20,922 nucleotides of DNA from Ruminococcaceae bacterium UBA5396 (lineage in GTDB: Bacteria > Bacillota > Clostridia > Oscillospirales > Acutalibacteraceae), in NCBI GenBank assembly GCA_002410715.1, contig DHOG01000149.1:1-20922 (forward strand), read 5' to 3'. The position numbers and the translations under genes were made by a program. This document shows positions 1,582 through 16,741 of the stretch, in pieces. Each line of letters begins with the position of its first letter. Positions within the stretch are counted from its first letter, which is position 1. Below the pieces are notes generated by a model, which was not told the origin of the DNA, made no database searches, and saw only the letters and a list, made by a program, of their open reading frames with translations.

Positions 1582-2211
1582 ATGTATAGGTGCTTTTTCA
1601 AGAGACTGATTGATATTATCCTGTCCCTTTGCGGAATAATCGTTTTCTCTCCCATTATGTTGATGGTTGCGATTGCCATTAAACTTGATTCTCCGGGTCC
1701 GATTTTTTTCAAGCAAAAGCGGATTGGATTACATAAGAAGTATTTTAACATTTTTAAATTCCGGTCAATGCCCGTAAAAATCCCCCCCGATGTCCCGACC
1801 CATCAATTGGGAGATGTTAGTTCGTGTTTGTCAAAATTTCAGAAATTTATACGAAAGTCTTCTATCGACGAGCTCCCGCAGCTTTTCAACATACTCTCGT
1901 CTAAGATGAGCATCATTGGACCGCGCCCGGCCTTATGGAATCAATATGATTTGATTGAAGAACGGGATAAATACGGTGCGAATGACATCAAGCCCGGGCT
2001 AACCGGCTGGGCTCAGATAAACGGCCGTGATGAGCTGGAAATCAGCGAAAAAGCGTGCTATGATGGTGAGTATGTCGAAAAGATGGGGTTTCTTTTTGAT
2101 GTGAAGTGTTTTATCGGCACCATTGTTACGGTTTTGAAAAAAGATGGTGTTGTTGAGGGCGGAACTGAAAGTTTAGAATCCGAAAATGAAGAAGCTAAGA
2201 CACTATTTTGA
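1582..2211 (+). CDS. Initiating phosphoglycosyl transferase (bacterial sugar transferase, PglC/EpsL/WcaJ C-terminal type)
   Basis: 209 residues, the short monotopic form with only the catalytic domain. A basic and hydrophobic N-terminal segment (about 8-34) forms the membrane re-entrant helix. It is followed by SPGPIFFKQKRIG, KFRSM, the catalytic dyad in SIDELPQLFNIL (Asp96-Glu97), MSIIGPRP, and KPGLTGWAQINGRDE, all hallmarks of the family. It transfers a sugar-1-phosphate, usually of an N-acetylated hexose, from a UDP-sugar to undecaprenyl phosphate at the inner face of the membrane and so starts the repeat unit. The exact sugar cannot be read from the sequence. ATG 1582 has a weak upstream site (GTAGGT). 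Its stop overlaps the region where the next gene begins. Confidence 0.92.
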   Translation: MYRCFFKRLIDIILSLCGIIVFSPIMLMVAIAIKLDSPGPIFFKQKRIGLHKKYFNIFKFRSMPVKIPPDVPTHQLGDVSSCLSKFQKFIRKSSIDELPQLFNILSSKMSIIGPRPALWNQYDLIEERDKYGANDIKPGLTGWAQINGRDELEISEKACYDGEYVEKMGFLFDVKCFIGTIVTVLKKDGVVEGGTESLESENEEAKTLF

Positions 2212-2243
2212 AAAGGATATCGCTGAAGGGAATGTTCGGTAGA

Positions 2244-3134
2244 ATGATTTTAGTAACCGGGATTACGGGTCACAGCGGTCGCTATTTCCTGCAGGAATTA
2301 AAAAATAGCAAGTATGAAAATACCATTAGATGTATCGTCAGAGAGACTTCGAAGATCGACATTTTGCAAAATTGCGGATTAAAGGTTGAAACGTGCTTTG
2401 GCGATTTGAATGATGAAGCATTTTTAGATAAATGTATGAAGGGAATTGATACGGTTGTACATATCGCAAGTATTCGTTATTCGAAAAAAATTATTAAAGC
2501 TGCGATAGACAATCAAGTAAAGAGAGCGGTATGCGTACATACAACCGGAATCTATTCAAAATTTAAGGCTGCGTCTGAGGAGTATAAAGCTATAGACAGA
2601 ACGCTGAAGGAAATGATCGAAGGCACTGACATTCAGTTGACAATACTCCAACCAACTATGATTTACGGCGATATGTGTGATCATAATATGAGCAGGTTTA
2701 TTAAAATGGTTGATAAACTTAAACTATTTCCGGTCATAAATCATGGATCATGTATGATTCAGCCGGTAAACGCAAGAGATTTGGGCAAAGCGTATTATCA
2801 GGTACTTACTATACCGGCCGATAAGGCGGGAACATTATATAACTTGTCAGGGGATAAGCCGATCCAGTTGATTGAAGTTTTAAGAATAATCAGTAACACC
2901 CTTGGCAAAAGAACAATATTTATAAGTTTTCCGCTTTGGCTGGGTGTTTTGCTTGCACGAACTGCAAAAATACTAACTTTAGGGAAGATCGATTATATTG
3001 AAAAAATCCAAAGAATGTCTGAGGACAGGTGCTTTTCACATGAGGATGCAGAGAAGGATTTTGGTTATAAGCCCTGCTTCTTCAGCGAAGGAATATTAGC
3101 AGAAATTAATGAGTATATCAGCCAAAAGAGCTGA
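2244..3134 (+). CDS. NAD(P)-dependent epimerase/reductase-like protein (atypical SDR)
   Basis: 296 residues from ATG 2244. Possible earlier starts in the same frame are ATG 2232 and TTG 2208, the latter overlapping the previous stop. I prefer 2244 because the Rossmann strand then starts at residue 2 (MILVTGITGHSG, a TGxxGxxG nucleotide-binding loop) and AAGGGA lies upstream, though rather far. An acidic residue pair (GDLND), a VVHIAS strand and an LQPTMIYGD strand follow in SDR order. The usual catalytic YxxxK is not obvious: SEEYKAIDRTLK has Tyr but no Lys four residues on. Neighbours in other loci are 4-ketoreductases or 4-epimerases of the first sugar on or before the lipid carrier. Here its place directly after the phosphoglycosyl transferase suggests the same kind of job. 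Substrate unknown. Confidence 0.75.
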   Translation: MILVTGITGHSGRYFLQELKNSKYENTIRCIVRETSKIDILQNCGLKVETCFGDLNDEAFLDKCMKGIDTVVHIASIRYSKKIIKAAIDNQVKRAVCVHTTGIYSKFKAASEEYKAIDRTLKEMIEGTDIQLTILQPTMIYGDMCDHNMSRFIKMVDKLKLFPVINHGSCMIQPVNARDLGKAYYQVLTIPADKAGTLYNLSGDKPIQLIEVLRIISNTLGKRTIFISFPLWLGVLLARTAKILTLGKIDYIEKIQRMSEDRCFSHEDAEKDFGYKPCFFSEGILAEINEYISQKS

Positions 3135-3154
3135 TCTTTTCGGATGGGTGAAAT

Positions 3155-4279
3155 ATGAGAATTATTGTGCTATCCTGTCATACGCCATCTCTTTTTTGGT
3201 TTCGTATGGATATGATGATTGATTTTATAAGATCTGGTTATGAAGTCTATGCACTGGGAAATGACAATGAGGATGTTTGGAAACAACAGTTTACTAAGCA
3301 TAACATTATATATAAACAAATAAAATTTCACAGAAACGGACTAAACCCAATATCAGATTTTATCTCAACCATTCATTTAATTTCTCTTATCAAAGATATT
3401 AAGCCGGACAAAATTTTTATTTATCAAGCGAAAACCATAATCTATGGAAGCATTGCTGCGAAAGTAGCCGGTGTTTATGATGTTTATTCTCTTGTAGCAG
3501 GACTGGGATCAATATTCAGGGGAAACGGATTTAAAAACAGTGTTATAAGGGCATTGTTGAAAGTCCAATACAAAATAGCATGTTGCTTTAATAAGGCTGT
3601 TTTCTTCCAGAATGACGATGACAGGAGGGAATTCGTAAACAACAGGATTATAGCAAAAAATAAGACGATAATCATAAATGGATCGGGCGTAAATCTTGAA
3701 AAATTTAAACCGACAGCTTTGCCTGATACGCCGGCTTTTTTGTTTATAGGCAGACTGATAAAGGATAAAGGAATCATTGAGTATTTAGAAGCGTGTAAAA
3801 GAATCAAAGAAGAATATCCGCAGACTCGTTGCCTTCTTGTCGGACCGTTTGACAGCAATCCTACCTCTCTTAAACCGGCTGATTTGGATCAATATATTGC
3901 AAATCATATTGTTGAGTATTACGGAGAGCAAAATGACGTAAGACCGTTTATTTCGCAATGCTCGGTATTTGTGCTACCATCTTATTATGAAGGTACACCG
4001 AAAACAGTTTTGGAATCAATGGCGATGGCAAGGGCGATTATTACAACGGATGCTCCCGGGTGCAGAGAAACGGTTATTAACGGAGTGAACGGTTTTTTGG
4101 TAAACATTAAGAATATAGAAGATTTGGTTGACAAAATGAAGTTCTGTATTATCAACCGGGATATTACAAAAAAAATGGGAGAAGAGAGTCTGCGCATTGC
4201 TATAGAAAAATATGATGTTACAAAAGTGAACCATCAAATCCAAAAGACGATGAACATTAAGAAAGCAGATGGTGTTTAA
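3155..4279 (+). CDS. Glycosyltransferase family 4 (GT-B fold)
   Basis: 374 residues. The N-terminal half starts MRIIVLSCHTPSLFWFR and has the PDKIFIYQAKTIIYGSIAAKVAG segment and VAGLGS. The C-terminal half has INGSGVNLEKFKP, FLFIGRLIKDKGI, and the family's EGTPKTVLE motif (Glu279 to Glu287, E-x7-E). These features place it with GT4 enzymes such as PglA and CapM, which commonly add the second sugar (often HexNAc or FucNAc) to the lipid-linked primer in the cytosol. This role is inferred; the acceptor and donor cannot be read. ATG 3155 has GGGTGA a few bases upstream. The stop TAA shares its last base with the ATG of the next gene (TAATG), so translation is probably coupled. Confidence 0.92.
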   Translation: MRIIVLSCHTPSLFWFRMDMMIDFIRSGYEVYALGNDNEDVWKQQFTKHNIIYKQIKFHRNGLNPISDFISTIHLISLIKDIKPDKIFIYQAKTIIYGSIAAKVAGVYDVYSLVAGLGSIFRGNGFKNSVIRALLKVQYKIACCFNKAVFFQNDDDRREFVNNRIIAKNKTIIINGSGVNLEKFKPTALPDTPAFLFIGRLIKDKGIIEYLEACKRIKEEYPQTRCLLVGPFDSNPTSLKPADLDQYIANHIVEYYGEQNDVRPFISQCSVFVLPSYYEGTPKTVLESMAMARAIITTDAPGCRETVINGVNGFLVNIKNIEDLVDKMKFCIINRDITKKMGEESLRIAIEKYDVTKVNHQIQKTMNIKKADGV

Positions 4280-5595
4280 TGGGCTTATACGAGAGAATTA
4301 TTAACCGCGAAGAAAAAATATCCTTAATCGGACTCGGTTATGTCGGCATGCCGATAGCAGTAACCTTTTCAAAAAAAGTGAATGTAATTGGGTTTGATGT
4401 TAACAAACAAAAAATAGAGTTATATAAAGCGGGTATCGACCCCACCAAAGAGGTAGGCAATGAAGCCGTCTCGAAATGTACGGTTGATTTTACATCTGAT
4501 GAAACAAGATTGAAAGAAGCAATGTTCCATATTGTCACTGTACCCACCCCGGTAAACTCGGATCATACACCCGATTTAACTTCAATAAAAGGTGCCAGTG
4601 CGATTTTGGGGCGTAATTTGACAGCCGGTTCGATTGTTGTATACGAATCCACTGTTTTTCCGGGGGTTACCGAGGATATATGCGTACCCATTCTTGAAAA
4701 AGAGTCCGGTCTGAAATGCGGCGCGGATTTTAAGATTGGTTATTCACCGGAACGCATTAATCCGGGAGACAAGACGCACCGACTGGAAACAATCACGAAA
4801 ATTGTATCCGGTATAGATGAGGAAACGCTTGATACAATTGCCAAGGTATATGAATTGGTGGTACAAGCGGGGGTATACAAAGCCGAATCCATCAAGGTTG
4901 CCGAAGCTGCAAAGGTAATTGAAAATAGTCAGCGCGATATCAACATTGCATTTATGAATGAATTATCCATCATATTTAATAAAATGGGGATTGATACAAA
5001 ATCTGTTTTAGAGGCTGCCGGAACAAAATGGAACTTTTTAAATTTTACACCCGGCTTGGTCGGAGGACATTGCATCGGTGTCGACCCCTACTATCTTACA
5101 TATAAGGCTGAGCAGTTGGGATACCACTCCCAAATCATTTTGGCGGGACGGCGAATCAATGACAACATGGGCAAATATATTGTGGAAAATCTGATGAAAA
5201 GCTTAATTAAAGCCGATGTTCCGGTCAAAAATGCCAAAGTCACCATTCTTGGATTCACCTTTAAAGAAAACTGTCCCGATACCCGTAACACACGCGTCAT
5301 TGACATTGTACGTGAGCTTCAGGAATTCGGAATTGATCCGGTCATTGTTGACCCGGTAGCGGATCCGGCGGAAGCGAGCCGGGAATATGGCATTCGGTTT
5401 GCTGAAGCCGATTCAATTCGAAATATGGATGCAGTTGTTCTTTCTGTGGCACATGATGAATTTAAGAACCTGTGTCGGGCAGACTTGGGAAAATTTTTCA
5501 AGTCAACGAACAGTAAAAAAGTCTTATTGGATATCAAGGGAATTCTCAATAAAAGTGAGTATGAAAAAGCAGGATATATATACTGGCGTCTTTAA
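4279..5595 (+). CDS. UDP-N-acetyl-hexosamine 6-dehydrogenase (TviB/WbpO type)
   Basis: 438 residues. An N-terminal NAD-binding loop GLGYVG (18-23) is followed by GFDVN and the VPTPV strand. The middle domain carries GGHCIGVDPYYLTYKAEQLG with the catalytic Cys at residue 265, and the C-terminal domain contains TFKENCPDTRNTRV. The wording of these blocks, and the AGIDPT.E segment, resembles TviB and WbpO rather than plain UDP-glucose dehydrogenase. The reaction is a two-step NAD-dependent oxidation of C6, giving UDP-GlcNAcA or UDP-GalNAcA. The next gene is the matching TviC/WbpP-like 4-epimerase, so the pair should supply UDP-N-acetyl-D-galactosaminuronic acid (as in Vi antigen). Substrate choice between GlcNAc and GalNAc is inferred. 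Start ATG 4279 overlaps the previous stop by one base. Confidence 0.93.
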   Translation: MGLYERIINREEKISLIGLGYVGMPIAVTFSKKVNVIGFDVNKQKIELYKAGIDPTKEVGNEAVSKCTVDFTSDETRLKEAMFHIVTVPTPVNSDHTPDLTSIKGASAILGRNLTAGSIVVYESTVFPGVTEDICVPILEKESGLKCGADFKIGYSPERINPGDKTHRLETITKIVSGIDEETLDTIAKVYELVVQAGVYKAESIKVAEAAKVIENSQRDINIAFMNELSIIFNKMGIDTKSVLEAAGTKWNFLNFTPGLVGGHCIGVDPYYLTYKAEQLGYHSQIILAGRRINDNMGKYIVENLMKSLIKADVPVKNAKVTILGFTFKENCPDTRNTRVIDIVRELQEFGIDPVIVDPVADPAEASREYGIRFAEADSIRNMDAVVLSVAHDEFKNLCRADLGKFFKSTNSKKVLLDIKGILNKSEYEKAGYIYWRL

Positions 5596-5638
5596 TATTT
5601 TATTATAAAAGTGTATCATGGACAAAGGAGCTATTTTA

Positions 5639-6613
5639 ATGGGTTATCAAGGATTAGAATTCAGCAGTGATTCTGTGTTTCTTGTAACAGGAGGGGCGGG
5701 ATTTATTGGTTCAAATCTGTGCCAAGCATTGCTTCACATGGGCTATACCGTTCGGTGCTTTGACAACCTTTCTACCGGAAAACAGGAACATGTAGATGAA
5801 TTCGCTTTAAATCCTAACTATAAATTCATAAAAGGTGATATTCGTGATCTTGATACCTGCATAGAAGCCTGCAGCGGTGTGGACTATGTGCTTCATCAGG
5901 CTGCATGGGGGAGTGTACCCCGCAGCATTGAAATGCCGCTTTTATATGAAGAAATCAACATCCGCGGCACATTAAATATGATGGAAGCCGCTCGGCAAAA
6001 CCGGGTTAAAAAGTTTGTTTATGCATCCAGTTCATCCGTATACGGAGATGAGCCGAATCTCCCCAAAAGGGAAGGACACGAAGGCAATTTGTTATCCCCG
6101 TATGCGCTTACTAAAAGGGTAGACGAAGAATACGGAAAGTTATATACTAAACTGTATGGTTTGGATACTTACGGGCTGCGGTATTTTAATGTTTTCGGCA
6201 GGCGTCAGGATTCCAACGGTGCATATGCCGCAGTGATTCCGAAATTTATTAAACAATTATTAAATGATGAAACTCCAACCATAAACGGAGACGGAAAACA
6301 GTCACGGGATTTTACCTATATTGAGAATGTTATTGAAGCCAATTTAAAAGCCTGCCTTGCTTCACATCAAGCTGCCGGACAAGCCTTTAATATCGCCTAT
6401 GGGGGGCGGGAATATCTGCTGGATATTTATTACGCCTTAACCAAAGCTTTGGGGAAGGATATCGAGCCGTTATTCGGACCGGAACGCAAGGGAGATATCA
6501 AGCACAGCAACGCGGACATAAGCAAGGCGAGACAGCTGCTTGGCTATGACCCTGATTATAGCTTTGCAGATGGTATTCAGCTGGCGATTGTGTGGTATAA
6601 GGAGAATTTGTGA
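5639..6613 (+). CDS. UDP-GlcNAc/GlcNAcA 4-epimerase (TviC/WbpP type)
   Basis: 324 residues from ATG 5639. This start is chosen over the in-frame ATG at 5618 because AAAGGAG (5624-5630) lies eight bases before it. It is an extended SDR: GGAGFIG (18-24), YASSSSVYGDEPNLPK, catalytic Tyr155-x3-Lys159 in SPYALTK, and the GLRYFNVFGRRQDSNGAYAA block that is typical of the WbpP/TviC group. These enzymes interconvert UDP-GlcNAc/UDP-GalNAc or, preferably, their uronic acids. With the dehydrogenase just upstream the likely product is UDP-GalNAcA. The stop TGA overlaps the ATG of the next gene (TGATG). Confidence 0.93.
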   Translation: MGYQGLEFSSDSVFLVTGGAGFIGSNLCQALLHMGYTVRCFDNLSTGKQEHVDEFALNPNYKFIKGDIRDLDTCIEACSGVDYVLHQAAWGSVPRSIEMPLLYEEINIRGTLNMMEAARQNRVKKFVYASSSSVYGDEPNLPKREGHEGNLLSPYALTKRVDEEYGKLYTKLYGLDTYGLRYFNVFGRRQDSNGAYAAVIPKFIKQLLNDETPTINGDGKQSRDFTYIENVIEANLKACLASHQAAGQAFNIAYGGREYLLDIYYALTKALGKDIEPLFGPERKGDIKHSNADISKARQLLGYDPDYSFADGIQLAIVWYKENL

Positions 6614-7653
6614 TGGATAAGCCGAAGATTGCAATACATAAAAATGACGCAATATTCAATCATTCAACCAATTGGAATAATGTATGGATAGATTATTGTC
6701 AGAAAAACAATCTGAATTACGGCGTTGTAAACTGTTTTGACCATGACATTCTTGCTACATTAAGAAATTACACCTGTCTCGTCTGGCATTTTAGTAATTA
6801 TGCGCTTCAAGAGATGTTGTTTGCAAGAAGCATTTTGAATTCAGCTAAAAAAATGGGTATAAGAGTTTTTCCGGATTACGACACAGCGTGGCATTTTGAC
6901 GATAAAATAGCGGAGTACTACTATCTTCAGGCAGTGGATGCACCTGTTCCCAAGAGCTATATATTTTATGATGTGAAATCCTGTACAAGCTGGCTTAAAT
7001 TACAGAATACTTATCCATTAATAGCAAAGCTCAGATGTGGTTCCGGTTCAAATAATGTTAAAATGATTAGAAATTATAGCGATGCGTTGAAACATACAAA
7101 ACGCATGTTTGGGAGAGGCTATAAAAATGTACCAAGTATTTTTTTTAAAACAAAATCAAATTTGAAGTCAGCTGGGAACTGCAAAACAATTTTGAAACGG
7201 GCAAAACGGATACCTGATTTTATACAAACCTATACGCACGCAAGAATGCTTCCAGGTGAACGTGGTTATACTTATTTTCAAGAATTCATTCCAAATGACG
7301 GGTATGATATAAAAATTGTTGTTGTCGGCGATAAGTTGAGCTTTATCGCAAGGAATGTACGGAAGGGTGATTTCCGTGCATCGGGCGGCGGGACTTTGTT
7401 TTTCGACAGGAATTTAGTAACACCTGATATTATAAATACCGCATTTGAAACAAGCGATAAACTAGGTTTTCAATGTATGGGTTACGACTATGTTGTTGAC
7501 AACAGAACGAATAAGCCTTACATAATTGAAATTAGCTATGGATTTTCTCATACAGCATTGATGCAGGCAGGGGGCTATTGGGATAGAAATGGTTTATGGC
7601 ATAATGAACCATTGAATGCACCGGCAGAAGTTTTAATGAATCTTAACAGGTAG
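6613..7653 (+). CDS. ATP-grasp family ligase (RimK-like), polysaccharide-locus type
   Basis: 346 residues from ATG 6613, which overlaps the previous stop (TGATG) and has AAGGAG (6599-6604) eight bases upstream; a GTG one codon earlier is less likely. The central part reads as an ATP-grasp fold: PLIAKLRCGSGSNNV (Lys139 and the Gly-rich loop), YFQEFIPNDGYDIKIVVVGDKL, and PYIIEISYGFS. In most ATP-grasp enzymes the last motif is E-x-N for metal binding; here it reads Glu306-Ile-Ser308. ATP-grasp enzymes activate a carboxylate as acyl phosphate and join it to an amine or thiol. Coupling to the UDP-GalNAcA genes suggests amidation of a uronic acid or addition of an amino acid to the glycan; this is inference. 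The fold assignment is good, the reaction unknown. Confidence 0.8.
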   Translation: MDKPKIAIHKNDAIFNHSTNWNNVWIDYCQKNNLNYGVVNCFDHDILATLRNYTCLVWHFSNYALQEMLFARSILNSAKKMGIRVFPDYDTAWHFDDKIAEYYYLQAVDAPVPKSYIFYDVKSCTSWLKLQNTYPLIAKLRCGSGSNNVKMIRNYSDALKHTKRMFGRGYKNVPSIFFKTKSNLKSAGNCKTILKRAKRIPDFIQTYTHARMLPGERGYTYFQEFIPNDGYDIKIVVVGDKLSFIARNVRKGDFRASGGGTLFFDRNLVTPDIINTAFETSDKLGFQCMGYDYVVDNRTNKPYIIEISYGFSHTALMQAGGYWDRNGLWHNEPLNAPAEVLMNLNR

Positions 7654-7699
7654 AGCGAAAAGCACTGTTTTATATATGGCTTGAAAGGGTATGGATATA

Positions 7700-8506
7700 A
7701 TGCCTAAAGTATCAATTATAATGTCCACATTTAACGGCAGCAAATATATCTGTGATGCGATTGAATCAATTATTAGCCAGACGTTCTCTGACTGGGAGCT
7801 TATTATTTGTGACGATTGTTCAACCGATGATACCTATAAAATTCTAACGAAATACAGTGCTAAATATCCTGAAAAGTTTATTATATTTCAAAATAAGAAT
7901 AACCTAAGGCTGGCAGCATCCCTCAATGAATGTCTAAAATATGCAAGCGGTGAATACATAGCCAGAATGGACGATGATGACATATCTTTACCGGAACGTT
8001 TTAGCTGTCAAGTAAAGTTCCTGAATGAACATCCGGACGTATCGTATGTGTGCAGCAATTGCTATCTGTTTGATAATGATAATAACATCTGGGGTGTTTC
8101 GATAAATAAAAGACCTCTTACAGTTGAGAATATATATAAATATCAGCTAATTGTTCATCCTACGGTTATGATCCGAAAAGATGTTTTAACCCAAGTCGGC
8201 GGGTATACAGTTGCTAGGTATACGAGGCGAACAGAAGACTTTGATTTGTGGTGCAAATTGTGTTCAGAAAAAAAAACAGGATTTAATTTGGATGAGATAT
8301 TATTAAAATATCGTGAAGATAATCATAGTTTTAAAAAAAGAAAAGCTAAATACAGAGTGGATGCATTTAAGTTGAGAATGATTTGGCGACGGAGATTAAA
8401 TTTGCCGTTACGATATGATTTGTATGCTTATGCAGCATTAATGAAAATTTTAATTCCAAGTCCGATTATAAAAATATTCCATAAAAGAATAACAAGAATA
8501 AAATAA
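7700..8506 (+). CDS. Glycosyltransferase family 2 (GT-A fold)
   Basis: 268 residues from ATG 7700. An in-frame ATG at 7691 lies too close to the ribosome binding site AAAGGG (7684-7689), which sits ten bases before 7700. Visible features are PKVSIIMSTFNGSKYICDAIESI, SQTFSDWELIICDDCSTDDT for nucleotide binding, NLRLAASLN, the metal-binding ARMDDDD (Asp91-94), HPTVMIRKDV, and the TEDFDLWCK segment with the probable catalytic Asp. The C-terminal 60 residues are basic, which would hold the enzyme at the membrane surface. It transfers a sugar from a nucleotide donor to the growing lipid-linked unit in the cytosol. Donor and acceptor are unknown. Confidence 0.93.
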   Translation: MPKVSIIMSTFNGSKYICDAIESIISQTFSDWELIICDDCSTDDTYKILTKYSAKYPEKFIIFQNKNNLRLAASLNECLKYASGEYIARMDDDDISLPERFSCQVKFLNEHPDVSYVCSNCYLFDNDNNIWGVSINKRPLTVENIYKYQLIVHPTVMIRKDVLTQVGGYTVARYTRRTEDFDLWCKLCSEKKTGFNLDEILLKYREDNHSFKKRKAKYRVDAFKLRMIWRRRLNLPLRYDLYAYAALMKILIPSPIIKIFHKRITRIK

Positions 8507-8524
8507 CATTGAGGGTGCGTTTAT

Positions 8525-9319
8525 ATGGAAAACGAGTGTGTTTTGTTAATGCTTGGTTGTGATAAGAATATTGATTTAGTGGAACTTAATTTGGATATGA
8601 TAAAACGATTTTGGCCTGACTGTCCGTTCCCTGTTTATATCAGTCTTGAGACATATCATGGGAATTATGGTGATAATATTAAAATCATGAATTCAAATGA
8701 AACAAAATGGTCAAAAAGAATTATGGAGCATCTGGCGGGATTAAACAGTAAATACGTAATGATTACGTTAGATGACTTTATTATTGAAGACTTTGTACAT
8801 ACCCAAACAGTTGTTGATTGTATCAATTTTATGAATGAAAATCCGCAAGTTGTTAATATGGCTTTTGATGCGTTTAACGGTAAAAGAATTCCTGGAAAAG
8901 ATTTTAAACATTTTCAGTGCAGAAAAAAAAGAAGCAATTGTCTTTTGAATTGGCAAATTGGATTATGGAGAACCGATAACCTAATAGAGCTTATGGATCC
9001 AAATGAGAATCCCTGGGAATCTGAGGTGTTTGGTTCTATGAGAGCAGAATTAAAAAAAGAATCACAATTTTATTGCTTGGATGTTAAAATGCATAAACCA
9101 ATTGAATATAATAATGGTTGGCTTGTTGTAAGGGGTTGCTGGAACGGAAACGAGATTAAGCGATTGGAACAGAAATTAAATATTAAAATTGATACGGGAG
9201 ATAGACTGATAAAATACAAAGACTTTCAATATATATCATTTTTTCCTCGAGTGAAGCGTCGCCTAAAAATTATTTTTAAAAGGTATAATTATAAAATTAA
9301 AAGTAGGTTGGAAGCATGA
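8525..9319 (+). CDS. Glycosyltransferase-like protein of unassigned family
   Basis: 264 residues. I do not recognise a named family. The N-terminal order (ECVLLMLGCDKN, then VELNLDMIKRFWPDCPFPVYISLE, then SKYVMITLDDFIIEDFV with Asp83-Asp84) resembles a GT-A fold with a DXD-like acidic site. A strand LLNWQIGLWRTDNLIELM and an acidic NENPWESEVFGS segment follow, as in enzymes that choose an acceptor. The C-terminal 35 residues are very basic (RVKRRLKIIFKRYNYKIKSR), fitting contact with the inner membrane face. GAGGGTG precedes the ATG. The stop overlaps the ATG of the GT6 gene by four bases (ATGA), so the two are coupled. A role in adding one sugar is inferred from shape and place. Confidence 0.7.
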   Translation: MENECVLLMLGCDKNIDLVELNLDMIKRFWPDCPFPVYISLETYHGNYGDNIKIMNSNETKWSKRIMEHLAGLNSKYVMITLDDFIIEDFVHTQTVVDCINFMNENPQVVNMAFDAFNGKRIPGKDFKHFQCRKKRSNCLLNWQIGLWRTDNLIELMDPNENPWESEVFGSMRAELKKESQFYCLDVKMHKPIEYNNGWLVVRGCWNGNEIKRLEQKLNIKIDTGDRLIKYKDFQYISFFPRVKRRLKIIFKRYNYKIKSRLEA

Positions 9320-10140
9320 GAAAAATAGCAATAATGTATATTTGTATTGGAAAGTACTCTGTTATGTGGCAAGCATTTTATGAATCAGCGCAAAGATTTT
9401 TATTTAATAATGACAGCAAACATTTTTTTGTTTTTACTGATTCGGAGGAAATATTAAATTCATTTTATCCCGATGTCACTACAATACGGGAATCTAATTA
9501 CGGTTGGCCGGGCAACACCCTTTACAGGTTCAAAATGTTTTCAAGTATTTCTGAAACAATTGAATCTTATGATTATGCATATTTTTTTAATGCAAATGCG
9601 TGTTTCGTAAAACCCGTATCTGACGAGGTGCTACCGAAAGATGGCTCGAAAATTGTTGTAGCACAGCATTTTAAAATGAGTGGCCTCAATCCGCTAAAAT
9701 ATGCTTATGATAGAAACGCGAAAAGTACTGCTTATGTAAAATGGGGTCATGAGGGCAAAGACTATATACAGGCTTGCTTATTCGGAGCAACCGGTTCTGA
9801 ATTTTCAAATTTAAGTAATATAATCAATAAAAACATAAAACAAGATGAAAAGCATGGTGTAGTTGCATTATGGCATGATGAATCCCATTTGAATAAATAT
9901 ATAATTGGAAAGAAATATACTTTGTTGCCGATATCTTATGTTTATCCTGAAGTTCTGTCATTGCCGGGCGAAATAAATATTCTAATGAGAAATAAAGAAA
10001 AATTTGCAAGTTTAAATACTTTGCGTTACAGTAAAAAAAGCATTATCAGAAATTTGGTTGAAAAAACATATAATCAATTTAGAAAATTAAAAGGATTGTA
10101 TTATTATTTGACAATTTCAAAATTAAAGAGGATTAAGTAA
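9316..10140 (+). CDS. Glycosyltransferase family 6 (ABO blood-group / alpha-1,3-Gal(NAc) transferase type), NXN variant
   Basis: 274 residues, the length of bacterial GT6 catalytic domains, with no membrane anchor. Matches to the GT6 pattern run from end to end: HFFVFTDSEE (36-45), the WPGNTLYRFKMF block (64-75), YFFNANACFV with Asn92-Ala-Asn94, YIQACLFGA (150-158), and the very characteristic WHDESHLNKY (186-195) followed by LLPISYVYPE. Vertebrate members use a DXD motif to bind Mn. Bacterial members such as BoGT6a carry NXN and work without metal, and this protein has NAN. The family transfers Gal or GalNAc in alpha-1,3 linkage with retention of configuration, often to fucosylated or plain galactosides. 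By eye, the positions matching the ABO specificity residues 266 and 268 are Gln152 and Cys154. The tail is basic. Coupled by ATGA to the gene before. Confidence 0.9.
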   Translation: MRKIAIMYICIGKYSVMWQAFYESAQRFLFNNDSKHFFVFTDSEEILNSFYPDVTTIRESNYGWPGNTLYRFKMFSSISETIESYDYAYFFNANACFVKPVSDEVLPKDGSKIVVAQHFKMSGLNPLKYAYDRNAKSTAYVKWGHEGKDYIQACLFGATGSEFSNLSNIINKNIKQDEKHGVVALWHDESHLNKYIIGKKYTLLPISYVYPEVLSLPGEINILMRNKEKFASLNTLRYSKKSIIRNLVEKTYNQFRKLKGLYYYLTISKLKRIK

Positions 10141-10143
10141 ATA

Positions 10144-11562
10144 ATGCATATAAAGTCGCGGCAAAAAAACAATGTAAAATATACATATTGGTGGTTTCAT
10201 GTTATACAGCTTGTTTTTTGTATGTTCAGCATATTCGTATGTATAACAGAAGGTGATAAACTATTCTTATTACCATTGCTATACTTTATTTTATATCTTA
10301 TTGTTTTTATTTTATTAAAAATTAAGTTAAATTTTGTAGCCTTGATGGTGTTTTCTATCACATGTTTACGATATGTTGTTTTGCCTTTGTTATATTATAC
10401 AAACAACGGAACCATAGGAAAAATCACCTATATCAGATATACCTTAAAATATACAAACCAAGTTATATTAATAATGGTGCTAGAATTAATTGCGATTATT
10501 TTTGCATACGTGGTATCCTATAAAAAATATCGTACTGATGATTTACAGGATAATATTTTTAGCCGGAATAATCACTATAATGCGACGGTTGGCAAATCCT
10601 TTGGGATATTTTCTTTCATTTTGGTAATAGTCGGTATTGTGATTGTAATAAGAAATCCATTATTGATACGTGGTATAAATGACCCGAAAATAAGTGCGAG
10701 TATTATAAAAAATAGTATAATGGCAATTTATCAAGTTGTTATAATTATTTTTGCATTACTAATAATAGAGCTAATATATTTCAGTAAGCTAAAAGAAAAC
10801 AATAAATGCGCACTGACAATTATATTGTATACACCATTTATTTACTTAACCTCTTTTATGGCGACTTCAGTTTCAAGAAATTCATTTATAATAAATTCTC
10901 TAATTCTTTTATTATTAATATTTAAGCTATATAGAAAATATTTTATCCGTTCTTTAATTGTAATAGGGGTATTCGGTATTGTATATTTTTTCTGGATAAC
11001 CTATATTAAATCTGGAAATCACCAAATAAGTACGAATATGTTTTATAGTGTATACAAGTCATTTGTTAATTACCCCATGTTTAATGCGTATTTTGCCGGT
11101 CCAACAAATATTGAATCAGGTTATTTAATGTACAAAAGACAGGGTGAGTTCATAAATATTCTGTATTTATTTAAAGATATGTTTTCAAATGTCCCTTTTG
11201 TAAGTAAATATTTCTACAATCAGAATACACTAATTATGTTTAATAAATTTCTATCAAATGGTTTGGCTTACGACCAGATAATCCCTATATCAACACAATC
11301 AAGTTTATACTTTGGATTAATTTTTAGTGGTTTATTATCCTTTGCAGCGACCTATTTTTCTAATAAGTGTTTTTACTCTTTATTCTCAGAAAGAAATATA
11401 ACGTTGTACTATGTGAGAGCATATACCACAATCGTTTTATGTATGGCTCCTATTTTGTCTATCAACTCTATTTCGATGCTATTATCATTAAGGGTACTGC
11501 CGTTAGTAATAATATACATAATCAACAAAAGGGTTACGCTACGAAAAAGTAATGAAGAATAA
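10144..11562 (+). CDS. wzy: Polysaccharide repeat-unit polymerase (Wzy-like membrane protein)
   Basis: 472 residues, almost entirely hydrophobic helices with short loops: about eleven or twelve membrane segments can be counted. A larger soluble loop is visible around residues 280-370 (INLY-type region with YKSFVNYPMFNAYFAGPTNIESGYLMYKRQGE), as expected for the external loop of Wzy proteins. Wzy proteins are poorly conserved, so the call rests on topology, loop position and gene context next to a flippase. It would join repeat units on the outer face of the membrane. The sequence is strongly A+T-rich. AAGAGGA (10126-10132) precedes the ATG at 10144. The stop TAA shares a base with the next ATG (TAATG). 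Confidence 0.78.
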   Translation: MHIKSRQKNNVKYTYWWFHVIQLVFCMFSIFVCITEGDKLFLLPLLYFILYLIVFILLKIKLNFVALMVFSITCLRYVVLPLLYYTNNGTIGKITYIRYTLKYTNQVILIMVLELIAIIFAYVVSYKKYRTDDLQDNIFSRNNHYNATVGKSFGIFSFILVIVGIVIVIRNPLLIRGINDPKISASIIKNSIMAIYQVVIIIFALLIIELIYFSKLKENNKCALTIILYTPFIYLTSFMATSVSRNSFIINSLILLLLIFKLYRKYFIRSLIVIGVFGIVYFFWITYIKSGNHQISTNMFYSVYKSFVNYPMFNAYFAGPTNIESGYLMYKRQGEFINILYLFKDMFSNVPFVSKYFYNQNTLIMFNKFLSNGLAYDQIIPISTQSSLYFGLIFSGLLSFAATYFSNKCFYSLFSERNITLYYVRAYTTIVLCMAPILSINSISMLLSLRVLPLVIIYIINKRVTLRKSNEE

Positions 11563-12968
11563 TGAGGAATAGTGTGAAAAAAAATATCTTGTATGTTATG
11601 ATTGCCAACATAATATCTTTAGCAATTTCTTTGGTAACAAACTTGATGTTGCCAAAGTATTTATCAGTTCATACTTACTCACAAATAAAAACGTATACAC
11701 TGTATTTGAGCTATGTCGGTTTTTTTCATTTCGGGTATAATGATGGCATGTATTTAAAATATGGAGGCAAAGAGCTAACCGGAATTTCAAACAAAGAGTT
11801 TGGATCTAATTTTTACAATTATTTATTTCTTGAATTATTTGTAACAGCAATATTTTTAATTGTTGGAGTATTTACAAGAGACCTTCTTATAATTGCTTTT
11901 TCATTTGGACTTCTTACTTCAAACATTATTGGTTATTTCAAGTCGTTTTATCAAGCGGTAGGAGAATTTAAGGCGTACAGCGTTGCATTGAATCTGGAAA
12001 AAGTTATATTATTAATCGTAAATTTGTTCTTACTTTTTATAATTAATACCGATGATTATATATTATATATTGGATTGCAAGTGATTATTCAAATTACAAT
12101 AATGATTTATCTTACTGTGCTGTTGCATAAAAAGTTTTCATTCATAAATCATATAGCATTTTCATTTAGGGAGATGGAAGATAATATCCAAACCGGATTT
12201 GTTCTAATGCTGGGTAATTTCTCAAGCGGAATTTTAACCGGTTTAGACCGCTGGTTTATAAAGTTACTTATGAATACCGCTTCATTTGCTGCGTATTCAT
12301 TTGCAGTTAGTCTCGAAAATATGATAAATATTTTTGTTACGCCGATTACATTTACTTTATACAATTATTTATGTAATAACCACCAACCAAAGGCAGTACT
12401 TCGGATAAAAAAAATGTCATTAATATGGGGCTTTCTGGTTATATCAGCAGCATTTCCATGTAAGTTTGTCATTGAGAATTTTATTGAAAAATATAAAGAT
12501 GCTTCTTCTATCATTTTCATATTATTTTCAACTCAAATATTTTATATAGTTATAAAGGGAATTTACATTAATTTATATAAAGTTTATGGAAAGCAACGGA
12601 ATTATTTTTTACAGACAATCATTATTGTTGTCATTGCATTCGTTTTAAATATCATTATGTATACTTTGTTTAGAAGCAAGGAAAGCATTGCCGTTGCAAC
12701 ATTAATTACTTCAGCTTTATGGTTAATAATATGTGAAGTTAAAGATGAACAAAATAGATTTAAAATTAATGAAGTGGTTGCAATTGTCTGTGTTTTGTTT
12801 TCCTTTATTACCTATGGGATACTATTAGATGCCGTTCTGGGATTTTTCATATATATCATAACCTGTATAATTGTTAGTTGCATATTTATGAGAGATAGCG
12901 TTGTTGATATTAAAAGAGAAATAATAAAAACCATAAAAAAGTTACGAATGAGTGTCACTTCAAGTTAA
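11562..12968 (+). CDS. wzx: Polysaccharide flippase (Wzx-like, MOP superfamily)
   Basis: 468 residues with roughly 12-14 membrane segments spread evenly. The N-terminus (NILYVMIANIISLAISLVTNLMLPKYLSV) is the usual first helix pair of Wzx/RfbX transporters, and GFVLMLGNFSSGILTGLDRWFIKLLM is the typical start of the second half, with a charged Asp-Arg in a helix. It moves the undecaprenyl-linked repeat unit from the inner to the outer face of the membrane for Wzy. The ATG at 11562 overlaps the wzy stop by one base; an in-frame GTG at 11574 preceded by GAGGA is an alternative start. Very A+T-rich like its neighbour. Confidence 0.88.
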   Translation: MRNSVKKNILYVMIANIISLAISLVTNLMLPKYLSVHTYSQIKTYTLYLSYVGFFHFGYNDGMYLKYGGKELTGISNKEFGSNFYNYLFLELFVTAIFLIVGVFTRDLLIIAFSFGLLTSNIIGYFKSFYQAVGEFKAYSVALNLEKVILLIVNLFLLFIINTDDYILYIGLQVIIQITIMIYLTVLLHKKFSFINHIAFSFREMEDNIQTGFVLMLGNFSSGILTGLDRWFIKLLMNTASFAAYSFAVSLENMINIFVTPITFTLYNYLCNNHQPKAVLRIKKMSLIWGFLVISAAFPCKFVIENFIEKYKDASSIIFILFSTQIFYIVIKGIYINLYKVYGKQRNYFLQTIIIVVIAFVLNIIMYTLFRSKESIAVATLITSALWLIICEVKDEQNRFKINEVVAIVCVLFSFITYGILLDAVLGFFIYIITCIIVSCIFMRDSVVDIKREIIKTIKKLRMSVTSS

Positions 12969-12994
12969 AAGAATGTATTGCAGGTGAAAAAAAG

Positions 12995-14035
12995 ATGTTC
13001 AAAAACAAAACTTTGTTAATCACTGGCGGAACAGGTTCCTTCGGTAACGCTGTTCTCAATCGTTTTCTTCAAACCGATATCGGTGAAATTCGTATTTTCT
13101 CCCGGGATGAAAAGAAACAGGATGACATGCGTCATCAATTTCAAGCAAAAGCACCCGAAGCGGCTGAGAAAATTAAGTTTTTCATCGGTGATGTGCGGGA
13201 TCTTTCAAGCGTAAAAAATGCTATACACGGTGTTGATTACATATTCCATGCGGCGGCACTCAAACAGGTTCCGTCCTGTGAGTTTTTTCCTATGGAAGCC
13301 GTCAAAACCAATGTGATTGGAACAGACAACGTGTTGACGGCGGCCATTGATGAAGGCGTAAAAACCGTTATCTGCCTGTCAACCGATAAAGCAGCGTATC
13401 CGGTCAACGCCATGGGAACATCCAAGGCAATGATGGAAAAAGTCGTTGTAGCAAAGTCTCGGACTGTTTCTCCCAAAAAGACAAAAATATGCTGCACCCG
13501 TTACGGCAATGTATTGTGCTCCCGCGGTTCGGTTGTTCCGCTTTGGGTTGACCAAATCAGAGAAAACAAGCCGATTACGATTACCGAGCCCAATATGACA
13601 AGATTTATTATGAGTCTTGACGAGGCGGTCGGCCTTGTATTGTTTGCATTTGAACATGGAGAATCGGGTGATATTCTTGTTCAAAAGGCACCTGCCTGCA
13701 CCATCAGCGTGCTGGCTCAGGCGGTCAAGGAACTATTTCATGACGATAGCGAAATCAAGGTAATCGGTATCCGGCATGGTGAAAAAATGTGTGAGACTCT
13801 TTTAACCAACGAAGAGTGCGCTTATGCTGTGGATCGAGGGGATTTTTATCGGGTCCCATGCGATAAACGAGATCTGAATTATGACAGGTTCTTCAAACTT
13901 GGAGACATCCAGCGTAATACGCTAACAGAATTCAGCTCAAATACCACCAAGCTGCTCGACATTGAGCAAGTGAAGGAAAAGCTGCTTTCATTAAAGTATA
14001 TCCGTGACGAGATTTCAAAACGGGAGAATGGCTGA
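12995..14035 (+). CDS. capE: UDP-GlcNAc 4,6-dehydratase/5-epimerase (CapE/FnlA/WbjB type)
   Basis: 346 residues. TGGTGSFG (10-17) is the NAD(P) loop, followed by IFSRDEKKQDDMRHQF, a hallmark of the CapE/FlaA1 group. The active-site stretch STDKAAYPVNAMGTSK has Met140 where most SDRs have Tyr, with Lys144 four residues on; this Met is normal for the CapE branch. Further blocks are CCTRYGNVLCSRGSVVPLW and ITEPNMTRFIMSLDEAVGLV. The enzyme removes water from UDP-GlcNAc and inverts C5, the first step to UDP-L-FucNAc. The two later enzymes follow in order. AGGTGA lies before the ATG. Base composition is richer in G+C than the preceding wzx and wzy. Confidence 0.93.
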   Translation: MFKNKTLLITGGTGSFGNAVLNRFLQTDIGEIRIFSRDEKKQDDMRHQFQAKAPEAAEKIKFFIGDVRDLSSVKNAIHGVDYIFHAAALKQVPSCEFFPMEAVKTNVIGTDNVLTAAIDEGVKTVICLSTDKAAYPVNAMGTSKAMMEKVVVAKSRTVSPKKTKICCTRYGNVLCSRGSVVPLWVDQIRENKPITITEPNMTRFIMSLDEAVGLVLFAFEHGESGDILVQKAPACTISVLAQAVKELFHDDSEIKVIGIRHGEKMCETLLTNEECAYAVDRGDFYRVPCDKRDLNYDRFFKLGDIQRNTLTEFSSNTTKLLDIEQVKEKLLSLKYIRDEISKRENG

Positions 14036-14037
14036 CC

Positions 14038-15150
14038 ATGAAAATACTGATTACCGGTGCAAAAGGGTTTATCGGCAAAAACCTGATTGCCGAGCTGCGC
14101 AATCAGGGGTATACTGAACTATATGAATATGATCTGGACACAGCACCCGGTTTGCTTGATGGCTTTTGTAAAGAGGCGGATTTTGTGTTACACCTCGCAG
14201 GTGTAAACCGCCCTAAGGATCAGAGCGAATATATGGAGGGCAATTTCGGATTTACGTCAGTCTTGCTCGATACCCTGAAAAAGCATAGTAACAGCTGTCC
14301 GGTGATGATTTCATCCACAACTCAGGCGGTTCTGGATAACCCATACGGGAAATCAAAAAAGGCCGGAGAGGAATTATTGTTTGAGTACTGGCAGCAAACC
14401 GGAGCAGATGTTCTTGTCTACCGTTTCCCCAATGTATTCGGAAAATGGTGCAGACCAAATTACAACAGCGCGGTGGCGACGTTTTGCCATAACATTGCGA
14501 ATGACCTGCCTATTCAGGTGAATGACCGCAGCACCCAATTGCATCTGGTTTATATCGATGATGTTGTTTCCGAGCTAATCAACGCATTAAACAGCAAACC
14601 CAATAAAGCGGAGGATAGGTTTTGCTATCTGCCGGCGGTTTATACAAAAACCTTGGGTGAGATTGTGGATTTGCTTTATTCATTCAAAGCTTGCCGCATC
14701 GGGTTAGGCATACCGGATATGGCAGATGAGTTTACAAAAAAGCTTTATGCCACCTATTTATCTTATCTCCCGACAGATCAGTTCCGCTATCCTCTTAAAA
14801 TGAATGTTGATGACCGGGGGAGCTTTACCGAAATCATTAAAACCCCGGACAGAGGGCAGTTTTCGGTCAACATTTCCAGGCCGGGCATCACCAAGGGAAA
14901 CCACTGGCATCACACAAAGAACGAGAAATTTGTTGTAGTCGGCGGCAAGGGCGTAATCCGTTTCCGAAAGATTGGTACGGATGAGATTATAGAATGTTTT
15001 GTAAGCGGGGACAAAATTGAAGTGGTGGACATTCCGACAGGTTATACCCACAATATCCAAAACCTCGGCAGCACCGATTTAATCACATTTATGTGGGCGA
15101 GTGAGCCATTTGATCCGGACAAGCCGGATACATATTTTGAGGAGGTATGA
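14038..15150 (+). CDS. capF: Bifunctional UDP-4-keto-HexNAc epimerase/reductase (CapF/FnlB/WbjC type)
   Basis: 370 residues in two domains. Residues 1-245 form an SDR with TGAKGFIG (6-13), a VLHLAGVNRPK strand, and catalytic Tyr103-x3-Lys107 in PYGKSK. Residues about 250-368 form a cupin with GNHWHHTKNEKFVVV (His289, His291, His292 as metal ligands) and PTGYTHNIQNLG. This two-domain build is specific to the CapF family. The cupin half epimerises C3 of the CapE product and the SDR half reduces the C4 keto group with NADPH, giving UDP-N-acetyl-L-talosamine-type product (6-deoxy). Starts three bases after the capE stop. Its last codons carry GAGGAGG (15139-15145), which is the ribosome binding site of the next gene. 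Confidence 0.94.
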   Translation: MKILITGAKGFIGKNLIAELRNQGYTELYEYDLDTAPGLLDGFCKEADFVLHLAGVNRPKDQSEYMEGNFGFTSVLLDTLKKHSNSCPVMISSTTQAVLDNPYGKSKKAGEELLFEYWQQTGADVLVYRFPNVFGKWCRPNYNSAVATFCHNIANDLPIQVNDRSTQLHLVYIDDVVSELINALNSKPNKAEDRFCYLPAVYTKTLGEIVDLLYSFKACRIGLGIPDMADEFTKKLYATYLSYLPTDQFRYPLKMNVDDRGSFTEIIKTPDRGQFSVNISRPGITKGNHWHHTKNEKFVVVGGKGVIRFRKIGTDEIIECFVSGDKIEVVDIPTGYTHNIQNLGSTDLITFMWASEPFDPDKPDTYFEEV

Positions 15151-15153
15151 CAT

Positions 15154-15606
15154 GTGAAAACCGCAAAAAAAGATTTCAGTTATATCATTAGCGTTTCAAT
15201 CGGAACCGGCTGCTACAGGCATATAAAAATCGCACCAACGGCAACCCTGTTCGAGCTTCACGAAGCCATCATCGATGCCTTTGAATTTTTTGATAACCAC
15301 GCCCACGCTTTTTTTATGGATAACAAAGTCTGGAGCGACGGGGAATCCTATTACAGTGACATGATAGAGGATGAGGATCGGTATACTTCGGAGTATTCGC
15401 TTGAGCAGGTCGGCCTTGATGTTGACAAAAAGTTCAAATATATTTTTGATTTTGGAGAGGAATGGCGGTTCCAGTGCAAGGTTCTGAAGGTACTGGATGA
15501 GCAAACCGAGTTTCCCGAGATTGTGCGTTCAAAGGGTGAAGCACCGCTGCAATACGGATATGATATGGATGAGTTTGAAGATGAGGAACCGGACCAAGAT
15601 GAATAA
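15154..15606 (+). CDS. Plasmid pRiA4b ORF-3-like protein (PRiA4_ORF3 domain)
   Basis: 150 residues from GTG 15154, chosen because GAGGAGG (15139-15145) lies eight bases before it. The nearby ATG 15152 runs straight into TGA. Recognisable family blocks are the N-terminal ISVSIGTGCYRHIKIAPTATLFELHEAIIDAF, a central HAFFMDNKVW, and IFDFGEEWRFQCKVLKVLD, followed by IVRSKGEAPLQYG; the last 15 residues are almost all acidic. Proteins with this fold are widespread on plasmids and chromosomes and their role is not established. It is placed between two enzymes of one sugar pathway and coupled to both: capG starts inside its end with an 8-base overlap. No glycan function is known to me for this family. 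Confidence 0.82.
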   Translation: MKTAKKDFSYIISVSIGTGCYRHIKIAPTATLFELHEAIIDAFEFFDNHAHAFFMDNKVWSDGESYYSDMIEDEDRYTSEYSLEQVGLDVDKKFKYIFDFGEEWRFQCKVLKVLDEQTEFPEIVRSKGEAPLQYGYDMDEFEDEEPDQDE

Positions 15607-16741
15607 ATTAAAACTTATGACGGTGGTGGGAACCCGCCCCGAAATTATTCGGCTTTCGGAAGTCATTAAAAAGTGTGACAAGTATTTTGAGCAAATACTT
15701 GTCCATACCGGACAAAACTACGATTACACACTGAATCAAGTTTTCTTTGAGGACTTGAAACTGCGTCAACCCGATTATTATCTTGACTCGGTTGGGGCTG
15801 ATCTCGGCGAAACCATCGGGAACATAATCGCGAAGTCCTATAAGCTGATGGTGGAGCAGAAACCCGACGCACTGCTGATTCTGGGGGATACCAACTCATG
15901 CCTTTCTGCAATATCCGCCAAACGGCTGAAAATTCCGATCTTTCATATGGAAGCGGGCAACCGCTGCTTTGACGAGAACCTGCCGGAGGAAACAAACCGC
16001 CGTATTGTTGACCATATTGCAGATGTGAATATGTGTTACAGCGAGCATGCGCGCCGTTATCTTAATGCCGAAGGAACGTCAAAAGAGCGTACCTATGTGA
16101 CCGGCTCGCCTATGGCGGAGGTCTTGCGCCGTAATTTTGAGCAAATTAAATCCAGTGCAATCCTAAATCGGGCGGGGCTTGAAAAGGGCAAGTACATTCT
16201 TTTATCGGCGCATCGTGAGGAGAATATTGATACCGAGGCAAACTTCCTTAGTCTCATGAACGCCGTCAATGAGATGGCGGATAAGTATGATATGCCGATT
16301 TTGTATTCCTGCCATCCCAGAAGCAGGAAGTTTATTGAGCAGCGCGGTTTTATATTTGATAAGAGGGTAATCCCCCATCAACCGCTAGGGTTCCATGACT
16401 ACAACAACCTGCAGATGAATGCCTTTGCGGTGGTATCGGACAGCGGAACATTGCCGGAAGAAAGCAGCTTTTTCCTGTCAATAGGCAATCCGTTTCCGGC
16501 GATCTGTATCCGCACTTCTACCGAACGACCCGAGGCTTTGGACAGGGGGAATTTTATCCTTGCTGGGATCACAAGCGAGCAAGTCCTGCAGGCGGTTGAT
16601 ACCGCTGTCGGGATGAACTGCAACCGGGATTACGGCATACCGGTTCCGGATTACACCGATGAGAATGTTTCGAATAAGGTGGTAAAGATCATTCAGTCCT
16701 ATGTTGGAGTGGTAAATAAAATGGTGTGGAGAAAATATTAA
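15599..16741 (+). CDS. capG: UDP-N-acetyl-L-fucosamine synthase, non-hydrolysing 2-epimerase (CapG/FnlC/WbjD type)
   Basis: 380 residues from ATG 15599, with GAGGAA (15583-15588) ten bases upstream; the frame is open further back but a normal CapG begins with KLKLMTVVGTRPEIIRLSEVI. Further blocks are HTGQNYDYTLNQVFFEDL, LGDTNSCLSA, HMEAGNRCFDENLPEETNRRIVDHIAD, SAHREENID, SCHPRS and SDSGTLPEESSFF, all of the WecB-like GT-B fold used by UDP-HexNAc 2-epimerases. The wording matches the CapG branch rather than WecB. It inverts C2 to give UDP-L-FucNAc, the last step after CapE and CapF. It overlaps the end of the previous gene by eight bases and is the last gene of the operon. Confidence 0.93.
   Translation: MNKLKLMTVVGTRPEIIRLSEVIKKCDKYFEQILVHTGQNYDYTLNQVFFEDLKLRQPDYYLDSVGADLGETIGNIIAKSYKLMVEQKPDALLILGDTNSCLSAISAKRLKIPIFHMEAGNRCFDENLPEETNRRIVDHIADVNMCYSEHARRYLNAEGTSKERTYVTGSPMAEVLRRNFEQIKSSAILNRAGLEKGKYILLSAHREENIDTEANFLSLMNAVNEMADKYDMPILYSCHPRSRKFIEQRGFIFDKRVIPHQPLGFHDYNNLQMNAFAVVSDSGTLPEESSFFLSIGNPFPAICIRTSTERPEALDRGNFILAGITSEQVLQAVDTAVGMNCNRDYGIPVPDYTDENVSNKVVKIIQSYVGVVNKMVWRKY

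What the first reader, a model, noticed from the sequence alone, without database searches (positions are those of the whole stretch)
9316..10140. ABO-type GT6 glycosyltransferase with NXN instead of DXD in a Gram-positive glycan locus
The protein carries the GT6 signature blocks (WPGNTLYRFKMF, WHDESHLNKY) and NAN at residues 92-94 where the vertebrate enzymes have DXD. Known bacterial GT6 enzymes with NXN are metal-independent. In this locus it could cap or build a repeat unit with alpha-1,3-linked Gal or GalNAc, giving an epitope that resembles a histo-blood-group antigen. Specificity positions read Gln152 and Cys154, the latter unlike the small Gly/Ala I expect at that site, so donor choice may differ.
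Basis: partly seen in the sequence, partly recalled or inferred. Interest (0 to 1): 0.72.

Follow-up and report, generated by a model that had tools for sequence, protein, structure and literature searches.

The report
Capsule enzyme related to blood-group synthases
A spore-forming bacterium carries, in a surface-polysaccharide gene cluster, a relative of the enzymes that make human A and B blood-group sugars; it belongs to a branch whose active site and partner gene suggest it builds a different, non-blood-group sugar chain.

Summary

The blood-group reading is not supported. The protein belongs to a well-supported GT6 branch ('HF'): His-Phe instead of His-Pro at human 233-234, mostly Gln-Ala-Cys at 266-268. 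Most bacterial GT6 loci read here hold a GT11 fucosyltransferase, the H-acceptor enzyme (60 of 80). None of the three HF genomes examined has detectable GT11; in all three an unannotated GT-A-fold gene sits directly upstream of GT6.

Best reading: a metal-independent retaining alpha-1,3-transferase, probably using UDP-Gal, extending a lipid-linked repeat unit on a non-H acceptor. Neighbouring genes suggest UDP-FucNAc and UDP-GalNAc(A). Donor and acceptor are inferred, not shown.

The parts
9316..10140 (+). GT6 glycosyltransferase (HF/QAC branch), the finding itself; NAN 92-94, HF 118-119, QAC 152-154, HDESHLN 187-193, K227; predicted C-terminal helix 243-273
8525..9319 (+). Unannotated 264-aa protein with a predicted GT-A fold and invariant Asp83-Asp84; directly upstream of GT6 in the window and in both other HF loci; proposed acceptor-building partner (inference)
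10144..11562 (+). Hydrophobic protein, Wzy-polymerase-like by position (no family over cut-off)
   Evidence: inference
11562..12968 (+). Wzx-type flippase (PF01943)
12995..14035 (+). FnlA-like UDP-GlcNAc 4,6-dehydratase/5-epimerase (508 bits; curated cut-off 730, not reached)
14038..15150 (+). FnlB/WbcJ-like UDP-2-acetamido-2,6-dideoxy-hexulose reductase (415 bits; cut-off 500, not reached)
15599..16741 (+). FnlC-like UDP-GlcNAc 2-epimerase family protein (PF02350; WecB model over cut-off); start read as the in-frame ATG at 15599 (the queries began one codon earlier)
7691..8506 (+). GT2 glycosyltransferase, EpsE-like (below that model's cut-off)
6610..7653 (+). ATP-grasp protein, weakly RimK-like; possible ligase modifying the glycan (inference)
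5618..6613 (+). WbpP/WbgU-like C4 epimerase (UDP-GlcNAc/GalNAc or their uronates)
4279..5595 (+). TviB-like UDP-HexNAc 6-dehydrogenase (498 bits; cut-off 592, not reached)
3155..4279 (+). GT4 glycosyltransferase; best PDB match an alpha-1,3-GalNAc transferase (PglA type), E 2.4e-42
2208..3134 (+). SDR-type reductase/epimerase
1582..2211 (+). Bac_transf sugar-phosphate transferase (initiating enzyme)

Best explanation
A metal-independent, retaining GT6 transferase of a distinct branch (His118-Phe119 and mostly Gln152-Ala153-Cys154). It works on the cytoplasmic face, adding an alpha-1,3-linked hexose, most likely Gal from UDP-Gal, to a growing undecaprenyl-linked repeat unit that Wzx and a Wzy-like protein then export and polymerise. 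The sugar it caps is probably a beta-linked residue placed by the upstream GT-A-fold protein (8525-9319), not an H-type Fuc-alpha1,2-Gal. Shown here: family, fold, conserved catalytic residues, the co-directional gene cluster, the branch, and the partner swap in three genomes. Inferred: metal independence (from BoGT6a), donor, acceptor, linkage, and the role of the upstream protein.
For: Family and fold. BoGT6a ligand-contact residues kept at the aligned positions Y14, W64, N67, T68, R71, N92, A93, H118, W186, H187, D188, E189, K227 (roles from PMC3961637, sections read). N92 and E189 each in 120 of 120 listed homologues. HF branch: 31 rows on one side of a branch, support 100/99, in a 140-row tree (bootstrap not settled); still one branch, SH-aLRT 99, with the seven trait columns masked. 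Partner: GT11 in 60 of 80 GT6 loci (80 kept of 150 relatives), 38 of 48 non-HF loci with at least 5 kb on both sides (five of the 60 were seeds of the HMM). Pfam found GT11 in 7 of 7 candidates tested, six of them from the 80 loci. GT11 in 0 of 3 HF genomes and 2 of 2 comparison genomes; Fisher p 0.014, rows not independent. Gmd over cut-off in 0 of the 3 HF genomes. Homologue of 8525-9319 directly upstream of GT6 in 3 of 3 HF loci: window, Beduini massiliensis L002, and G740/L173. Donor: no Gly at human 266/268; passages of PMC4692239 say alpha-3-GalNAc transfer needs one. Host. Cluster: 15 genes from 1582 to 16741, all on +, gaps of at most 37 bp.
Against: No assay and no glycan structure. 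The Gly rule comes from mammalian enzymes. The locus encodes a WbpP-like epimerase that could supply UDP-GalNAc, which favours a GalNAc donor. Only three HF loci with context could be read, and the window's genome is 73% complete. Lack of Gmd is weak evidence: comparison genome G643 has GT11 but no Gmd over cut-off. BoGT6a contacts Thr10 and Thr134 are Ile11 and Ala130 here; its Arg243 and His239 could not be mapped, because the alignment ends before them. The upstream protein's relatives also occur away from GT6 (L007, L022, about 8-9 kb off), and its fold matches do not tell linkage: Foldseek lists human GTA chains too. 20 of the 80 loci have no GT11 hit, 19 of them non-HF, so lack of GT11 is not unique to HF.
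Confidence: 0.58

Rival explanations
1. It makes a true blood-group A- or B-like epitope: alpha-1,3-GalNAc or Gal on Fuc-alpha1,2-Gal.
For: GT6 family; closest solved relative is BoGT6a, an A-antigen-type transferase (PMC3961637).
Against: No GT11 found in its genome or in the two other HF genomes; no Gmd over cut-off; Pro234/Ser235 of human GTB replaced by Phe119/Lys120; separate branch. The genome is 73% complete, so a missed fucosyltransferase is possible.
Confidence: 0.1
2. It transfers GalNAc or GalNAcA (uronate) rather than Gal; Lys120, at the human Gly/Ser235 position, would meet a negatively charged sugar made by the cluster's TviB-like dehydrogenase and WbpP-like epimerase.
For: TviB-like and WbpP-like genes in the cluster; Lys or Arg at position 120 in 15 of the 23 HF proteins aligned.
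Against: Gln152/Cys154 leave no Gly at human 266/268; position 120 is Gly, Ala, Asn, Val or His in the other 8 of 23; no TviB-like gene was found in the 20.7 kb read around Beduini's GT6.
Confidence: 0.25
3. It is a degenerate or inactive passenger.
For: Substitutions at the loop 118-121 and at 152-154.
Against: Catalytic residues intact, open frame; a branch of 31 proteins in the tree shares the loop change.
Confidence: 0.03

Closest known systems
BoGT6a, Bacteroides ovatus GT6 (PDB 4ayj, 4cj8), metal-independent alpha-1,3-GalNAc transferase
   Different: A-G-G versus Q-A-C at human 266-268; HPGF versus HFKM; Thr10 versus Ile11
Human ABO transferases GTA/GTB (GT6)
   Same: Same family (E about 1e-16 to 1e-14), HDESHLN, Glu303 equivalent
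   Different: DXD to NXN; window has Ser60, Lys120, Gln152, Cys154 at the four A/B-determining positions 176, 235, 266, 268
E. coli O86 WbnI and Helicobacter mustelae BgtA (B- and A-type bacterial GT6; passages of PMC4202792)
   Same: Bacterial GT6 acting in surface-glycan assembly
   Different: Those act on Fuc-alpha1,2-Gal; their sequences were not compared here
UDP-L-FucNAc polysaccharide loci (FnlABC), as in S. aureus type 5/8 capsules (recalled)
   Same: FnlA-, FnlB- and FnlC-like genes with Wzx and an initiating transferase
   Different: No GT6 in those loci (recalled, not tested)

Membership tests
GT6 (Pfam PF03414) | Profile score over the curated cut-off | tested here: met
   84.9 bits against 25
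GT6 (Pfam PF03414) | GT-A fold superposing on solved GT6 | tested here: met
GT6 (Pfam PF03414) | Catalytic Glu (BoGT6a E192, human E303) and conserved Lys (BoGT6a K231) | tested here: met
   E189 and K227
GT6 (Pfam PF03414) | Retaining alpha-1,3 transfer from UDP-Gal or UDP-GalNAc | not testable with these tools
   Needs an enzyme assay
NCBIfam NF041524 'family 6 glucosyltransferase' | Score over the curated cut-off | tested here: not met
   243.1 bits against 250; I do not file it under this model
Metal-independent NXN bacterial GT6 (BoGT6a type) | NXN in place of DXD | tested here: met
   NAN 92-94 on BoGT6a 95-97
Metal-independent NXN bacterial GT6 (BoGT6a type) | Activity without divalent metal | not testable with these tools
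   Needs an assay with EDTA
Blood-group A synthase (alpha-3-GalNAcT) | Gly at human position 266 or 268 (rule from passages of PMC4692239) | tested here: not met
   Gln152 and Cys154
Blood-group A/B synthase | Fuc-alpha1,2-Gal acceptor made in the same cell (GT11, GDP-Fuc pathway) | tested here: inconclusive
   No PF01531 match and Gmd only below cut-off in G000, but the assembly is 73% complete

The most novel reading that the evidence does not exclude
The HF/QAC branch is a functionally separate GT6 subfamily that has left the H-antigen/GT11 pathway. It works with an uncharacterised GT-A-fold partner (the 8525-9319 family) on a non-fucosylated, possibly FucNAc- or uronate-bearing acceptor, and with a donor preference not seen in characterised GT6.
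Probability: 0.35. Interest if true: 0.55.

Novelty: new variant of a known kind. Interest (0 to 1): 0.42.

Why it matters
Surface sugars of gut bacteria have been proposed as a source of natural human anti-Gal antibodies (abstract start of PMC12656782 as listed). Telling which bacterial GT6 sit beside an H-acceptor enzyme (60 of the 80 loci read here) and which do not (for example the HF branch) gives a simple sequence-and-synteny rule for predicting which bacteria could display blood-group mimics. If the HF branch has another acceptor, it also offers a new metal-independent alpha-1,3-transferase for glycan synthesis and names a partner family to test.

Tried and rejected
Considered and rejected: that NXN is the striking point (N92 in 120 of 120 and N94 in 119 of 120 listed homologues; NAN, NSN or NGN in 193 of 200 sequences). 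That Cys154 is odd (45 of 120). That the FucNAc genes are specific to HF loci: FnlA-like genes of about 500-550 bits (cut-off 730, reached by none) are also in the non-HF genome G643 and a second time in the window's own genome; in G740 FnlA lies about 25 kb from GT6 on the same contig, so the link is weak. That GT6 came by descent: it was found in 0 of 59 other near relatives and 0 of 393 others sampled from the order, so lateral acquisition is likely; the low-GC genes 7691-12968 (27-33% GC against 36-44% upstream and 44-47% downstream) fit.

Led nowhere: a single-sequence search with 8525-9316 found only itself; the profile search (233 hits, 120 listed) was led by proteins about 22-26% identical to the window's and gave no further HF synteny. 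The viral-contig scan kept 80 of 491 relatives, best identity 38%; they were not analysed. Plasmid and phage searches gave 2 and 71 records, all under 60% identity. Family and order searches around Beduini (2 of 43 and 6 of 315 genomes with a match, some weak) and a phylum sample (2 of 398) gave one further HF locus, G740. PADLOC gave nothing for three proteins. The 2012 BoGT6a acceptor-complex paper is not held. Paper searches; none listed a paper whose title or abstract start told of a GT6 branch with these features or of GT6/GT11 pairing, but the listings were capped and most subscription papers are not held, so this is no proof of absence.

Rows dropped before counts: L079 (fragment) and P0016 (same protein as L002), leaving 198; the 28 of 200 QAC still count P0016 and L002 apart. 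The tree used P0001-P0060 without P0016, 79 loci without L079, BoGT6a and a human ABO fragment: 140 rows. GT11 counts (regular expressions, 49 of 80) were replaced by an HMM built from six proteins, five of them from loci that are then counted (60 of 80). Five loci scored as fused (L009, L021, L032, L033, L072); only L009 was checked with Pfam. Many of the 80 loci are short contigs, so a GT11 may be missed in them.

Full report

Residue mapping. Read from the printed alignments, N92-A93-N94 fall on BoGT6a 95-97 and human 211-213; E189 on BoGT6a E192 and human E303; K227 on BoGT6a K231. Human Pro234 falls on Phe119. BoGT6a Thr10 and Thr134, listed as ligand contacts in PMC3961637 (abstract, Introduction and Results/Discussion read), are Ile11 and Ala130.

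NXN is ordinary. Of 120 listed homologues (328 found), N92 is in 120 and N94 in 119. With 80 loci added, 193 of 200 sequences read NAN, NSN or NGN. PMC3961637 reports metal independence for BoGT6a (NXN) and metal dependence for a bacterial DXD enzyme, and said in 2014 that all bacterial GT6 but one were from Gram-negative species. Here 23 of 80 loci are from Bacillota, so a GT6 in that phylum is not rare today.

Cys154 is also ordinary. It occurs in 45 of 120. QAC occurs in 28 of 200; after removing a duplicate and a fragment, 24 of the 27 QAC rows fall in the HF group described next.

A branch of its own. Proteins with His-Phe at 118-119, where other GT6 mostly have His-Pro (145 of 164 others have Pro at 119), form one side of a branch with support 100/99 (31 rows of a 140-row tree; bootstrap not fully settled, rooted at the midpoint for drawing only), and still do when seven trait columns are masked (SH-aLRT 99). 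Of 34 HF rows in the larger alignment, 24 read QAC; Gly at 152 or 154 is found in 3 of 34 HF rows against 99 of 164 others.

Partner genes. In the 80 loci kept (of 150 relatives), an HMM for GT11 fucosyltransferases finds a member in 60; in 35 it is fused or within 600 bp. Among 48 non-HF loci with at least 5 kb on both sides, 38 have it. Pfam found GT11 in 7 of 7 candidates tested, including a GT6-GT11 fusion in L009. This fits acceptor building of the H type for most bacterial GT6, but 20 of the 80, 19 of them non-HF, have no hit. The three HF genomes within reach (window G000, Beduini massiliensis G426/L002, G740/L173) have no GT11 match anywhere, while two comparison genomes with non-HF GT6 do. 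Fisher p is 0.014, but the loci are related, n is 3, and G000 is 73% complete. Gmd over cut-off was found only in comparison genome G1075; comparison genome G643 has GT11 without it, so the Gmd result is weak.

Locus. Fifteen genes from 1582 to 16741 lie on one strand with gaps of at most 37 bp: an initiating sugar-phosphate transferase, SDR, GT4 nearest to PglA, TviB-like dehydrogenase, WbpP-like epimerase, ATP-grasp protein, GT2, the 8525 protein, GT6, a Wzy-like protein, Wzx, and FnlA-, FnlB- and FnlC-like genes with a small PRiA4-like ORF between the last two. Several of these reach their NCBIfam models only below the curated cut-off, so the sugar names are predictions. They suggest a Wzx/Wzy polymer with L-FucNAc and probably GalNAc or GalNAcA. 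The genes 7691-12968 have lower GC (27-33%) than those upstream (36-44%) and downstream (44-47%). GT6 was not found in 393 other genomes sampled from the order, which points to lateral acquisition.

Host. The genome (3.16 Mb, 210 contigs, 73% complete) has Spo0A over cut-off, which one of 14 control genomes reached, and no LpxC match, which four of 14 controls had. The window itself encodes a YkwD/SafA-type protein over both spore models' cut-offs. A genome of the same phylum holds the Selenomonas ruminantium locus L004, which places the host in Bacillota. Its species and habitat were not identified.

Mechanism and confidence. GT6 identity is close to certain. Metal independence is likely by homology (about 0.85). 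The donor is more likely UDP-Gal than UDP-GalNAc (about 0.55), because the active site lacks the Gly at 266 or 268 that passages of PMC4692239 say GalNAc transfer needs; the WbpP-like epimerase in the cluster argues the other way. A non-H acceptor is likely (about 0.7). The predicted helix 243-273 (pLDDT mostly 75-83, last residues about 49), with many basic and aromatic residues, recalls the lipid-binding-like C-terminus reported for BoGT6a and would suit a membrane-bound acceptor (inference).

Verdict. It is a member of a known family, in a branch with a different active-site loop and a different neighbour gene, which makes the blood-group reading unlikely and gives a testable alternative.

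Noticed in passing
L009, L032, L033, L072, L021: GT6 apparently fused to a GT11-like domain in single long ORFs (by the HMM; only L009 confirmed with Pfam): possible one-protein H-to-A/B synthases.
   Followed up: partly
L051, L071, L073, L074, L078, P0115: Bacterial GT6 with NGT, NAD or NID instead of NXN: divergent metal-site motifs.
   Followed up: no
L071 and L074: Nearly identical GT6 in records titled Akkermansia muciniphila and Clostridiales (short branches): recent transfer or a binning error.
   Followed up: no
6610-7653: Weakly RimK-like ATP-grasp protein inside the polysaccharide cluster; may attach an amino acid to a uronic acid (inference).
   Followed up: no
15154-15606: PRiA4 ORF3-like protein between the fnlB-like and fnlC-like genes, overlapping the latter.
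   Followed up: no
16848-19391 (-): 847-aa protein with weak matches to phage tail and virion proteins next to the cluster.
   Followed up: partly
926-1064: A 12-of-12 sigma-70-type promoter match at 926-954 just before a tRNA-Lys gene at 989-1064, upstream of the cluster.
   Followed up: no
L179 (own genome, contig C33): A second cluster with FnlA- and FnlC-like genes and a Wzx resembling the window's (404 bits): the genome may make more than one FucNAc polymer.
   Followed up: partly
own genome G000: Two Spo0A matches over cut-off on different contigs, a possible sign of a mixed bin.
   Followed up: no
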